This document shows, in pieces, positions 29,101-32,791 of a DNA stretch of 45,494 bases (position 1 is the first letter of the stretch; each line of letters begins with the position of its first letter). Origin of the DNA: Calditrichota bacterium. Lineage in GTDB: Bacteria > Calditrichota > Calditrichia > RBG-13-44-9 > J042. Below the pieces are notes generated by a model. That model was not told the DNA's origin. It saw only the letters and a list, made by a program, of their open reading frames with translations, and did no database searches. A program made the position numbers and the translations under genes. The DNA lies in assembly GCA_003696445.1 (NCBI GenBank), contig RFHE01000177.1, positions 1 to 45,494 on the forward strand. The letters run 5' to 3'.

Positions 29101-29129
29101 TTGCATTTCCGAGTCGAAATGCGTATAAT
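29101..29129 (+). promoter_or_regulatory. Strong sigma-70-type promoter of HicB-like gene
   Basis: TTGCAT (29101-29106), exactly 17 bases, then TATAAT (29124-29129), a perfect -10 box. The predicted start site is near 29136, about 50 bases ahead of the HicB-like start codon. It is the best housekeeping-type promoter match I see in the window. Confidence 0.7.
29103..29122. promoter_or_regulatory. Palindromic operator candidate between -35 and -10
   Basis: GCATTTC (29103-29109), six bases, then GAAATGC (29116-29122): a perfect seven-base inverted repeat that fills the spacer of the promoter. Its position would let a dimeric repressor block RNA polymerase. What binds it is unknown; autoregulation by the downstream genes is one possibility. 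Confidence 0.5.
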
Positions 29130-29185
29130 AACTCAGCTTCCGGGGGTAAACATTCGCCCAAACCTGTTCATCTGGAAATTGAGCC

Positions 29186-29374
29186 ATGAAATTTAAAATA
29201 CGGATTGAGCGAATTCGCGAGGGTCTTTTCATCGCCACGTGTCTGAACCTACCTTACTGCATGGTGGATGGAGAAGACGAACGGGAAGCCAGGCAACGAC
29301 TGCAGGCCGCTATCCAGGCCTACGTGCAAAGCTACCGAGATCGGCATGAAGAAATCCCTTATCGAAACAGTTAA
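29186..29374 (+). CDS. Short HicB-like protein
   Basis: The 62-residue protein matches the partial RNase H-like fold of HicB-type antitoxins: MKFKIRIERIREGLFIATCL, then LPYCMVDGEDEREARQRLQA and a closing helix. It ends before any DNA-binding domain, so it belongs to the short HicB-like group. HicB normally neutralises HicA, a small double-stranded-RNA-binding-like mRNA interferase, but no HicA-like sequence is adjacent. The next ORF, which overlaps its last 29 bases, encodes an unrelated-looking protein. The ribosome binding site is weak (GGAA ten bases upstream), and the promoter above is strong. An orphan HicB-like regulator is an equally fair reading. Confidence 0.7.
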   Translation: MKFKIRIERIREGLFIATCLNLPYCMVDGEDEREARQRLQAAIQAYVQSYRDRHEEIPYRNS

Positions 29375-29663
29375 CGGATCGATTCAGACGGGTCAATCGG
29401 ACCCCAATCTTCGCGTGCCGTTAAAATTGCTGATACAAAAGCTGAGGGAACACCGTTTTGCACGGGACTTCGAATCCCAGCTGGTGGTATTGTTTCGAAA
29501 GCAGGATTTCCCTTTTCACAGAATTGTACTTCCCAATCGGGAATGGATCTCCCGCGAGTTACTGGAACGGTACGTAAACGCTTTAGACCTTCCGGAAAGT
29601 TTGCTGCAACTCCCCGCAGCCGCCCCATCAGGGGAAAGCAAAGAGACCGAAAATAGGGATTAG
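29346..29663 (+). CDS. Unknown 105-residue protein overlapping HicB-like gene
   Basis: I do not recognise this protein. It starts MKKSLIETVNGSIQTGQSDP and has a helical stretch LRVPLKLLIQKLREHRFARD, then ESQLVVLFRKQDFPFHRIVL, a second helical part around ISRELLERYVNALDLPE and a polar tail. There is no signal peptide. The start ATG 29346 lies inside the HicB-like gene with GAG about seven bases upstream, so translation may be coupled. An in-frame earlier ATG at 29268 would overlap more deeply. Its TAG stop shares bases 29660-29663 with the stop of the convergent kinase. As the partner of a HicB-like gene it could be a toxin-like protein, but no evidence beyond position supports that. Confidence 0.6.
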   Translation: MKKSLIETVNGSIQTGQSDPNLRVPLKLLIQKLREHRFARDFESQLVVLFRKQDFPFHRIVLPNREWISRELLERYVNALDLPESLLQLPAAAPSGESKETENRD

Positions 29664-31906
29664 TTCAAGGCCTGTTTGACCCGCTGCAGGATATCCTTTA
29701 CCTGAAATGGTTTGCTCAAAAAGGCCAGCGCCCCGGCAGAGAGCACATCCTGCAAGTCTTCCTTATGGGCGTAGCCGCTGATGATGATGATCTTTTGAGC
29801 AGGTTTGATGCGCCTGATTTCGGCAAAAGTCCGCCGCCCGTCCATCACCGGCATGATCATATCCAGGATCACCAGGCCGATTTCCTCAGCATGCTTTTTG
29901 AAAATTTGCAAAGCCTCCTGGCCATTGGCCGCCGTGTAAACCCGAAGGCCGTTCATCTCCAAAACTTCGGAAATAACCGAGCGAATGTTGTATTCATCGT
30001 CCACCACCAGCACCGCTTTTTGTTTGCCATTCTGCGTTTTTGTTTCCGCCGTTGTTTTCTGGCGTGCTAAAGCGGAGGCTCCACGAATGGGAAAATAGCA
30101 AAAGACGCGGGTGCCCTGTCCCTCATCGCTGCGCAGCACAATGCTTCCTCCCATCTGCTTCAGCAGATTGTAGGCAAAGAATAGCCCTAATCCGTAACCC
30201 TGATTTTCTACTTTGGTCGTGTAAAACGGCTTAAAGATGTTCTGAACATGGCGGGCATCGATGCCAGGACCATTGTCCTCGAACACCATTTCGATGTAAC
30301 GACCTTTTTCCAGAAAAACGCCCGAGCCCACCCGCAAGCCATCTTCCTTTTGCTGGACACTGCGGGTGCTGATGTGAATATAGCCTTTGCGATCCCCCAG
30401 CGCTTCCAGGGCATTCCGGGTCAGGATGCCCAGCAAGCGTTTTACCGCTTCGGGATGCGCTTCCAGAGGCGGCAAACCGGGTTCCAATGCGTGGAGCACT
30501 TCAACACGCTCTCCATAACGGGCATTGAGTTTTTCCACAAAGGCTTTAATCTCCCGGTTAATGTCCACTTTCTGTGGAGCGGCCGGCTCGGGAAGGTTAA
30601 AACTCAAGAATCGCTTCACCACCTGCTCGGCCTGAGCCAGATATTTTTCCATCGCCGAAATCCGATTGATCAATTGCGGATTGTCCTGTAATTGATTTTT
30701 CAGATAACTGAGGTTTGGCACCAGATGTTGGACCAATTCGTTCAGAAACCCGTAGGCCTGCCGGGAAAAATGGGTAATTTCGTCCAGCAATTCAGTTTGC
30801 CTGGCTTGGGAGTCGGCAGCCACTTGATCGGTGACATCGACACCAAACACTAGGATAAGCGAAAAGCGGTTTTTCAGCTCCACTTTGGTTAAATAGAGGT
30901 CCAGAATCAACGTCTCTCCACTGGCGCGCTGAAAGCGAGAGCGAAATCGCCGGCGCTGGTTTTCCTCTAGTGTGCGATAAGTTTGCACGAAAGATTCTCG
31001 TTGTTCAGGCGGCAGCAAATGTACAAATTTTTCGCCCAGAAGGTAATCCTCATCCACACCCAGGCTTTTCAGGGCGGTTGCATTGGCGTGGAGGATTACC
31101 CCGCGGGGATCGACGGCAAAAATGAGAACCGGCCCCCCATCAAAATATTCCGCGTACTTGACGTCCGCCAGCAAACGTTTGGTTTTGAACTGCTTGAACA
31201 AACGCCCCTTCAGCTTTTCCAGATAAAACTGCTGGTAAAGGCTGAGGGCGATAGGCGGAGAAAGTAGGTTGAGTACAGATTGTTCCTGGGGCATGAACGG
31301 TTTTTCTTTGCGGACCAGCGCCCCGAAACCAATCAAGTTGCCGCGAACAATCAGCGGGAACAACATCAGCGAATGGGCTTCGAACACCTCCCAGGGTACC
31401 TGGGTAATCTGGAACTGTCTTACATTATTCAGGGCAACCGCCATGTCCCGGTTGCGAAAATATTCCAGAATGCTCATCAGTTCGGCTTCGCCCAATTTCT
31501 CGCGGTAGTATGGCTCTTTTTCCGGCGTCTCCGGCAGGTAAGTGAATTCGGGATCCAGATTGGAAAGACGAATGCAGATCAACCCGTCGTCGTGGGGAAT
31601 TTGCCTTTCCAGAAACTCCCGGATCAGGTTCCAGGCCTGCTCACGGGATTTTGTCCGCGCCAGGGTGCGGTAAAAATCAATGATTTCCGAGAGGACATCC
31701 AGCTGAACCAGGAAGGCATCGAATTGATTATCCAGGGTAGCAAAGGAGGTGCGAATCAACGCTTCCAGCTGGCTCATTTCCTGGGAAATGTTGGACAGCT
31801 CGGTGAATAGTTCGGCGCTTTCCTCAACCGTTTTCAGCCTGCGGACCAGTTCCTGGAAGTACTGAAAAAAGTTGCTGCGCGATTTCATTGAACCGTTGCG
31901 TTCCAT
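29660..31906 (-). CDS. Soluble GAF-PAS hybrid histidine kinase with divergent H-box
   Basis: The 748-residue protein lacks membrane segments. A coiled N-terminus precedes a GAF-like domain (about 75-225) and a PAS domain (about 255-365). The kinase region has the N box LLGILTRNALEAL (about 491-503), the G1 box FEDNGPGID (542-550) and G2 YGLGLFFAYN (571-580), so ATP binding looks intact. The H-box position reads LVQHLVPNLSYL, with His394 followed by Leu instead of the usual Glu or Asp. A receiver domain ends the protein, with VVDDEYN and acceptor Asp682 in LDMIMPVMDG. ATG 31906 directly abuts the stop codon of the HDOD gene (TGA then ATG), which implies translational coupling. ATG 31888 is an alternative start. 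Confidence 0.9.
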   Translation of the reverse strand: MERNGSMKSRSNFFQYFQELVRRLKTVEESAELFTELSNISQEMSQLEALIRTSFATLDNQFDAFLVQLDVLSEIIDFYRTLARTKSREQAWNLIREFLERQIPHDDGLICIRLSNLDPEFTYLPETPEKEPYYREKLGEAELMSILEYFRNRDMAVALNNVRQFQITQVPWEVFEAHSLMLFPLIVRGNLIGFGALVRKEKPFMPQEQSVLNLLSPPIALSLYQQFYLEKLKGRLFKQFKTKRLLADVKYAEYFDGGPVLIFAVDPRGVILHANATALKSLGVDEDYLLGEKFVHLLPPEQRESFVQTYRTLEENQRRRFRSRFQRASGETLILDLYLTKVELKNRFSLILVFGVDVTDQVAADSQARQTELLDEITHFSRQAYGFLNELVQHLVPNLSYLKNQLQDNPQLINRISAMEKYLAQAEQVVKRFLSFNLPEPAAPQKVDINREIKAFVEKLNARYGERVEVLHALEPGLPPLEAHPEAVKRLLGILTRNALEALGDRKGYIHISTRSVQQKEDGLRVGSGVFLEKGRYIEMVFEDNGPGIDARHVQNIFKPFYTTKVENQGYGLGLFFAYNLLKQMGGSIVLRSDEGQGTRVFCYFPIRGASALARQKTTAETKTQNGKQKAVLVVDDEYNIRSVISEVLEMNGLRVYTAANGQEALQIFKKHAEEIGLVILDMIMPVMDGRRTFAEIRRIKPAQKIIIISGYAHKEDLQDVLSAGALAFLSKPFQVKDILQRVKQALN

Positions 31907-32791
31907 TCAACTACCGATAATATCGAAAAATGCCTGATTCTGCGCAATCAATTCCTGGGCGTAATCGACTAAGCCCAGAAACTCTTCTTCGGAGAAAGAA
32001 AAATATCGGGTAAAATCGGGGTCGTAGGCCACAACCGCCTCCATGCCGGGCTGTTCCCCTTCCAGGTAGTGGGAGACGACATTAGCCAGATAGACCTGGC
32101 GAACCAGACCAGCAACAGCTGGATCGCCTTCAAACTCTTCAGGATAGTGATGATAACGGGTACTTTGGTGGAGTTTTTCCGGCAAGTTCCAGCGCTCCAG
32201 AAGGGCAGCCCCAACATCCCCATGATGAAATCCCAGCAGGCGGCGTTCCACCACGTCCAGGCGCAGCCCCTCCTGACGGCTTTTCTCCACCAACATTGGG
32301 AATTCTTCCGGCAACAGGCGCAGCTCGACCAATTTGCCCAGGTCGTGTAACAGTCCGGCAATGTAAAGCACCTCTTTGGCAGCCGGATCCAGCTTCTCCG
32401 CAATGGCCCGGCCGGTAAATGCTGTGGTGATCGAATGTCGCCACTGCGCTCCTAAATCGACACCGCTCTGGGCGGAAAAGCCTTTGTACAGGCTGTAAAT
32501 AGCAATGCTTACCGCAATATCGCGGAGTAAATTAAAACCCAGTATTACAATGGCGCGTTCCAAAGTCGTAATTTTTCTGGGGTAGTTAAAATAGCTCGAA
32601 TTAGCAATCCGCAGCACCTGGGAGGTCAAACTCTGATCCACAGAAATCACCTTGACCAGCTGGGAAATGGAAGTATCTGAATCCGAACAAAGCTGGATAA
32701 CTTGGAAAGCCACCGCATTGATGGTGGGTAGCTTCTTAATTTGTCCTATCAGCTTGTCCAGTTGATATGTCATCGCGGTCTCTGCTTTCAC
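31907..32791 (-). CDS. HDOD-domain signalling protein
   Basis: The 294-residue protein has an HDOD domain over most of its length: KLPTINAVAFQVIQLCSDSD, ISVDQSLTSQVLRIANSSYF, LGFNLLRDIAVSIAIYS and IAGLLHDLGKLVELRLLPEE. HDOD proteins resemble HD phosphohydrolases; many lack catalysis and act as signalling partners of kinases or diguanylate enzymes. The HDLGK motif is present here and a second His pair (FHHGDVGAALLERW) follows. The start is GTG 32791 with GGAGG four bases upstream, or ATG 32773. It sits upstream of and touching the soluble hybrid kinase, so the two probably act in one pathway. Confidence 0.9.
   Translation of the reverse strand: MKAETAMTYQLDKLIGQIKKLPTINAVAFQVIQLCSDSDTSISQLVKVISVDQSLTSQVLRIANSSYFNYPRKITTLERAIVILGFNLLRDIAVSIAIYSLYKGFSAQSGVDLGAQWRHSITTAFTGRAIAEKLDPAAKEVLYIAGLLHDLGKLVELRLLPEEFPMLVEKSRQEGLRLDVVERRLLGFHHGDVGAALLERWNLPEKLHQSTRYHHYPEEFEGDPAVAGLVRQVYLANVVSHYLEGEQPGMEAVVAYDPDFTRYFSFSEEEFLGLVDYAQELIAQNQAFFDIIGS

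What the first reader, a model, noticed from the sequence alone, without database searches (positions are those of the whole stretch)
29101..29663. HicB-like gene with an unrelated partner and a palindrome in its promoter
A near-consensus promoter (TTGCAT-N17-TATAAT) contains a perfect GCATTTC-N6-GAAATGC inverted repeat in its spacer. It drives a 62-residue HicB-like gene that overlaps a 105-residue unknown gene by 29 bases. The layout is that of an autoregulated toxin-antitoxin pair, but the partner does not look like HicA. This could be an undescribed two-gene module.
Basis: partly seen in the sequence, partly recalled or inferred. Interest (0 to 1): 0.7.

Follow-up and report, generated by a model that had tools for sequence, protein, structure and literature searches.

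The report
Conserved toxin-antitoxin pair with dead toxin
Two overlapping genes look like a bacterial poison-and-antidote (HicB/HicA) pair, but the poison has lost its cutting site, and the pair has been inherited for a very long time across one bacterial class, where some lineages fuse it into one protein, which suggests it was turned from a toxin into a normal cell component.

Summary
The layout is real: a 62-aa HicB-like gene (29186-29374) overlaps a 105-aa gene (29346-29663) by 29 bases. Profile-profile comparison (E 9e-18 against hicBA-order HicA) and an AlphaFold2 model whose six best PDB matches are all HicA show a divergent HicA. Pfam misses it because the catalytic Gly-Ser-His is gone (Q45-L46-V47 here). 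His is absent in 28 of 31 family members, and only one keeps a Gly at the catalytic Gly position. The family is single-copy, present in 31 of 40 genomes of the class (Calditrichota) and not recognised in 345 genomes outside it. It is two genes in the window's order and one fused ~148-aa protein elsewhere. It is under purifying selection in relatives, follows the host families, keeps conserved neighbours, and was not found in phages, plasmids or viral contigs. The promoter palindrome is not conserved and is of a kind common in the window. Best reading: a class 2/12 HicBA module turned into a non-toxic chromosomal two-domain protein; its present role is inferred only.

The parts
29101..29129 (+). 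Putative sigma-70-type promoter TTGCAT-N17-TATAAT
   Evidence: Read directly. -10 is 6/6, -35 only 3/6; not passed by the promoter scan. Many fused relatives carry TTGAC(A/T)-N17-TATATT 28-51 nt before the start codon.
29103..29122 (.). Perfect inverted repeat GCATTTC-N6-GAAATGC over the -35/spacer
   Evidence: Perfect match. Not conserved in relatives; p about 0.013 for a given 35-bp promoter.
29186..29374 (+). HicB-like small protein, 62 aa, no DNA-binding domain
   Evidence: PHROG 497 E 2.1e-6; hhalign of its family (A3) with small HicBs (A10) E 2.5e-22. The same domain in a fused relative models as HicB (2dsy, 6u0i, 6hpb_B).
29346..29663 (+). HicA-derived protein, 105 aa, without the catalytic Gly/His
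   Evidence: hhalign of its family (A1) with hicBA-order HicA (A9) E 9.4e-18. AlphaFold2 model: six best PDB rows are all HicA, Z 8.1 to 4.5.
29478..29486 (+). Codons Q45-L46-V47, where canonical HicA has G-S-H
   Evidence: Alignments; codons read. Catalytic role of Gly/His in HicA: PMC12297915.
29346..29374 (+). 29-base overlap of the two genes, +1 frame
   Evidence: Overlap or spacing varies among relatives, from an overlap of a few tens of bases to a gap of about 10.

Best explanation
The pair is a descendant of a compact hicBA toxin-antitoxin module (small HicB without a DNA-binding domain, encoded upstream of HicA: Gerdes class 2; class 12 when fused). Its HicA half has lost the catalytic Gly-Ser-His and so should no longer cut RNA (shown: homology, predicted fold, residue loss; inferred: loss of activity). 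The module entered or arose in an ancestor of the Calditrichota class, lost toxicity, and became a single-copy chromosomal gene kept by purifying selection. It is two overlapping genes in one order and one fused gene in the others (shown for relatives). How it most likely works (inferred): the HicB-like part and the pseudo-HicA part form a stable 1:1 unit, in cis when fused and in trans when overlapping and translationally coupled. The unit acts as a binding or regulatory protein rather than as a toxin. The loss of basic residues at the RNA-facing end of helix 2 and the drop in net charge make protein binding somewhat more likely than RNA binding.
For: HicA descent: hhalign E 3.2e-13 against 15 canonical HicA of the class and E 9.4e-18 / 1.9e-19 against hicBA-order HicA; negative control against HicB E 0.41. 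The family HMM picks up canonical hicBA-order HicA in other taxa at E 1e-12 to 1e-15. AlphaFold2 of the window protein: 1whz Z 8.1, 4p78_C 7.8, 6g26_F 7.1, 5yrz_B 6.9, 6hpb_A 6.2, 4c26 4.5, then unrelated rows at 4.1 or lower. The fused homologue models with high confidence (pLDDT 88.5, pTM 0.82) as HicB then HicA. Loss of activity: catalytic His column His in 22/24 canonical but 3/31 family; Gly in 19/24 versus 1/31; Gly22 and His24 of gonococcal HicA are essential for toxicity (PMC12297915). Kept function: dN/dS about 0.04 to 0.2 where dS is not saturated. Vertical inheritance: 31/40 genomes, one copy each; tree changes equal the minimum for six family labels; conserved neighbours; no hit in phages, plasmids or viral contigs. 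Canonical HicA in the same class is patchy, up to 13 matches per genome. Median net charge +3 versus +7 for canonical HicA.
Against: Three members of one genus have a His at the catalytic column, without the Gly. A different active site cannot be excluded by sequence. Nine class genomes lack the gene, some over 90% complete, so it is not essential. The window's own copy is divergent (long branch; 24-33% identity to the other two-gene partners; HicB motif GCHV reads YCMV), and no close relative allows dN/dS for this copy. The present molecular role is not shown at all. Neighbours are mostly on the opposite strand, so they give synteny but no operon partner.
Confidence: 0.78

Rival explanations
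1. An active toxin-antitoxin module whose HicA-fold toxin uses a rebuilt active site or acts by binding rather than cutting RNA; the HicB-like protein neutralises it.
For: HicBA gene order and overlap kept; HicA fold kept; a new conserved motif FPFxR and (I/L)PN in the family; a fused toxin-antitoxin can be active (CapRel and EzeT, as cited in PMC10865869).
Against: Catalytic Gly/Ser/His and the second His (VPxH) lost; no new invariant catalytic-type polar set beyond R59 and S69; vertical, single-copy, non-mobile distribution; lower net charge.
Confidence: 0.13
2. An anti-addiction or decoy module: the HicB-like/pseudo-HicA unit neutralises incoming HicA toxins or titrates their antitoxins.
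For: The family keeps both HicB and HicA folds, and canonical HicA systems invade the same class.
Against: No association with canonical HicA: 12 of 31 family-positive genomes carry an above-cut-off HicA, against 5 of 9 family-negative ones. The window genome has none. The fused form would occupy its own HicB face.
Confidence: 0.08
3. One reading: HicB-like gene with an unrelated partner, autoregulated through the promoter palindrome.
For: Palindrome lies over the promoter; Pfam finds no HicA in the partner.
Against: Partner is a HicA homologue. Palindrome absent in relatives and of a kind frequent in the window. HicB has no DNA-binding domain.
Confidence: 0.04
4. Decaying remnant of a toxin-antitoxin locus without present function.
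For: Catalytic residues lost; window copy on a long branch.
Against: Open in 31 genomes of many genera; purifying selection on both halves; conserved position and conserved promoters in relatives.
Confidence: 0.04

Closest known systems
Class 2 hicBA modules (Gerdes classification, PMC10865869)
   Same: Small HicB without DNA-binding domain upstream of and overlapping or touching hicA; HicA dsRBD fold; nearest sequences in our searches (DHQTGSHIILRN..PPHRRLTIPNHKEIAKGTLR type).
   Different: Catalytic Gly-Ser-His and second His replaced; helix-2 start KGTLR replaced; not recognised by Pfam HicA; vertical and single-copy instead of patchy.
Class 12 fused HicBA (PMC10865869)
   Same: One ~140-150 aa protein, HicB domain then HicA domain, as in 20 relatives.
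   Different: Active-site residues lost; restricted to one bacterial class in our searches; the paper treats class 12 as possible toxins and does not discuss catalytic residues in its main text.
Thermus protein 1whz (HicA-like) and HicA3 of Yersinia pestis (4p78_C)
   Same: Best structural matches of the window protein, Z 8.1 and 7.8.
   Different: HicA3 is a canonical HicA; the window protein has Q45-L46-V47 at the G-S-H site. That 1whz is a canonical HicA is from memory; the PDB title says hypothetical protein.

Membership tests
HicA mRNA interferase toxin (PF07927) | alpha-beta-beta-beta-alpha dsRBD fold | tested here: met
   AlphaFold2 model of the window protein, six best PDB rows all HicA.
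HicA mRNA interferase toxin (PF07927) | Sequence homology to HicA | tested here: met
   hhalign E 9.4e-18 against hicBA-order HicA, 3.2e-13 against class HicA; Pfam's HMM does not reach it.
HicA mRNA interferase toxin (PF07927) | Catalytic Gly-x-His at the start of beta2 | tested here: not met
   Q45-L46-V47 in the window; His absent in 28/31, Gly in 30/31 family members.
HicA mRNA interferase toxin (PF07927) | RNase activity and growth arrest | not testable with these tools
   Needs expression tests.
HicB antitoxin, small type | Partial RNase H-like beta-beta-beta-alpha domain homologous to HicB | tested here: met
   hhalign E 2.5e-22; PHROG 497 E 2e-6; fold in fused homologue.
HicB antitoxin, small type | Neutralises its HicA | not testable with these tools
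   Needs co-expression or binding test.
Gerdes class 2 / class 12 HicBA module | hicB (63-103 codons, no DNA-binding domain) before hicA, linked, overlapping or fused | tested here: met
   62 aa HicB-like plus 29-nt overlap here (at the lower edge of the published size range); fused in 20 relatives.
Mobile type II toxin-antitoxin module | Patchy, mobile distribution (phages, plasmids, variable copy number) | tested here: not met
   31/40 genomes, one copy, tree and neighbours follow host families, none in phages, plasmids or viral contigs with the fused query.
Mobile type II toxin-antitoxin module | Autoregulation through an operator in its promoter | tested here: inconclusive
   Palindrome present here only; not conserved; binding untested.

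The most novel reading that the evidence does not exclude
A whole bacterial class has converted a toxin-antitoxin module into a conserved non-toxic regulatory or scaffold protein (pseudo-HicA plus HicB), kept at defined chromosomal sites and split or fused between lineages: a clear natural case of toxin-antitoxin domestication with a new cellular role.
Probability: 0.55. Interest if true: 0.7.

Novelty: new variant of a known kind. Interest (0 to 1): 0.52.

Why it matters
What toxin-antitoxin modules become when they stop being selfish is an open question. Here the same degenerate HicBA unit is followed through about 30 genomes as two genes or one fused gene, with the toxin's catalytic residues replaced, the scaffold kept and selection still acting. 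That makes domestication directly testable, including in Caldithrix-type relatives. It also shows that curated HicA models miss such derivatives, so proteins annotated as hypothetical next to small HicB genes should be re-examined by profile or fold.

Tried and rejected
Pfam, NCBIfam, PHROGs and PADLOC on the 105-aa protein gave no usable name; PDB sequence search with the family profile gave only chance hits. The kinase that sits next to the module in both lineages looked like a shared functional partner, but cross-searches do not support that the two kinases are orthologous, so that link was dropped. Conserved operator: no shared inverted repeat upstream of the relatives. Sequencing-frameshift origin of the two-gene form: rejected, because 11 genomes share the split with varied overlaps and gaps. 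Anti-addiction link with canonical HicA: no association. The search for related loci with the more diverse alignment failed; with a closer set it found 13 loci, nearly all titled Calditrichota-type; one is titled Caldisericaceae but is 76% identical to the Caldithrix-type protein and is probably mislabelled.

Full report
Observation. The promoter is not near-consensus: its -10 is perfect but its -35 has 3 of 6 matches. The palindrome is only mildly unusual: 48 such repeats lie in the window against 32-51 in shuffles, with p about 0.013 for one given 35-bp promoter.

The first gene. The 62-aa protein is a small HicB: PHROG 497 (HicB-like) at E 2.1e-6, and its family profile matches small HicBs encoded upstream of HicA at E 2.5e-22. 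Pfam's HicB_lk_antitox is sub-threshold here (E 0.2) and better in relatives (E 0.0002 to 0.002).

The partner is a HicA derivative. Single-sequence library searches find nothing. Relatives from the same class of bacteria give a family. Its profile matches 15 canonical HicA proteins of the class at E 3.2e-13 and 11 hicBA-order HicA proteins at E 9.4e-18 and 1.9e-19; a control against HicB gives 0.41. Searching 385 genomes with the family profile, the strong matches outside the class that I read (12 loci, including all at 46 bits or more) are ordinary HicA genes with an intact GSH or GGH motif, nearly all with a small HicB just upstream. An AlphaFold2 model of the window protein (core pLDDT 87-96) has HicA in its six best PDB rows (Z 8.1, 7.8, 7.1, 6.9, 6.2, 4.5), above unrelated rows at 4.1 and lower. 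A fused relative (L088) models confidently (pLDDT 88.5, pTM 0.82), with HicB structures on residues 1-60 and HicA structures on about 70-133.

The toxin's active site is gone. In 24 canonical HicA sequences of the class the catalytic column is His in 22 and the preceding Gly is present in 19. In the 31 family members His is present in 3 (one genus, without the Gly) and Gly in 1. In the window the three positions are Q45-L46-V47 (codons 29478-29486). The second conserved His (VPxH) is also replaced. Gly22 and His24 of gonococcal HicA are required for toxicity, and a His at this place is described as catalytic in the family (PMC12297915; PMC7180214). The start of helix 2, KGTLR in canonical proteins, has become S-x-E-L-L or S-P-L-I-I in most members, and the median net charge of the domain falls from +7 to +3.

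Distribution and selection. The family is present once per genome in 31 of 40 genomes of the class, and none of the 345 genomes outside the class gives a match in its score range. Hits in genome contigs are Calditrichota-type records, apart from one that looks mislabelled. It is two genes in the window's order (11 genomes) and one fused ~148-aa gene in the other families (20 genomes), a split that the tree supports at 100/99. The tree needs the minimum number of changes for six host families. The fused gene lies next to lptB and the lptA/lptC/kdsD gene row in 14 of 20 genomes. The two-gene form commonly lies between a SpoU/TrmH-type methylase gene and a hybrid histidine kinase gene. dN/dS is about 0.04 to 0.2 where dS is measurable. 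Many fused genes have TTGAC(A/T)-N17-TATATT 28-51 nt before the start codon. The fused query finds nothing in 50,697 phage and 72,556 plasmid records or in viral contigs. Canonical HicA in the same class is, by contrast, patchy and multi-copy. The window's genome has no canonical HicA at E 0.01, though it is only 89% complete.

Mechanism. What is shown is descent from a class 2 / class 12 HicBA module (terms of PMC10865869), loss of the catalytic residues, and maintenance by selection in relatives. What is inferred is that the product is a non-toxic HicB/pseudo-HicA unit working by binding. Its target is unknown. The immediate neighbours are mostly on the opposite strand and the kinases next to the two forms do not appear orthologous, so context does not name the role. 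An anti-addiction role is not favoured: canonical HicA above cut-off occurs in 12 of 31 genomes with the family and 5 of 9 without it. Autoregulation through the palindrome is not favoured: no relative has it.

Limits. The window's own copy is among the most divergent and has no near relative to test selection on it. Structures are predictions. The literature search covers open-licence papers only; within it I found no description of a catalytically dead HicA family.

Noticed in passing
window 29660-31906 and 31907-32791 (-): Hybrid PAS/HATPase/REC kinase without a Pfam-recognised HisKA domain, followed directly by an HDOD protein; the kinase has clear orthologues at the same place in G003 and G006.
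   Followed up: partly
L112:3984-9047 and equivalent loci in other class genomes: In the fused lineages the gene sits on the opposite strand between lptB and, in many genomes, a PAS/HATPase/REC kinase gene, with an LMW phosphatase and a CitMHS transporter beyond it: a long conserved gene row in which the fused gene is the only reversed member nearby.
   Followed up: partly
L110:8275-10643 and L128:1397-3973: In the Caldithrix-type genus the fused gene instead follows a REC/sigma-54 activator gene on the same strand; Pfam finds REC, AAA+ and lid but no DNA-binding domain in it (L128).
   Followed up: no
G008 and G015: Two genomes of one genus carry 10 and 13 matches to canonical HicA, far more than the rest of the class.
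   Followed up: no
L086: Record titled Caldisericaceae bacterium holds a Caldithrix-type fused gene at 76% identity; likely a misnamed genome bin.
   Followed up: no
L130-L138: A widespread hicBA subtype with a strongly conserved HicA (DHQTGSHIILRN..RRLTIPNHKEIAKGTLR) and ~70-aa HicB in unrelated taxa; PMC10865869 states that class 2 has not been studied experimentally.
   Followed up: partly
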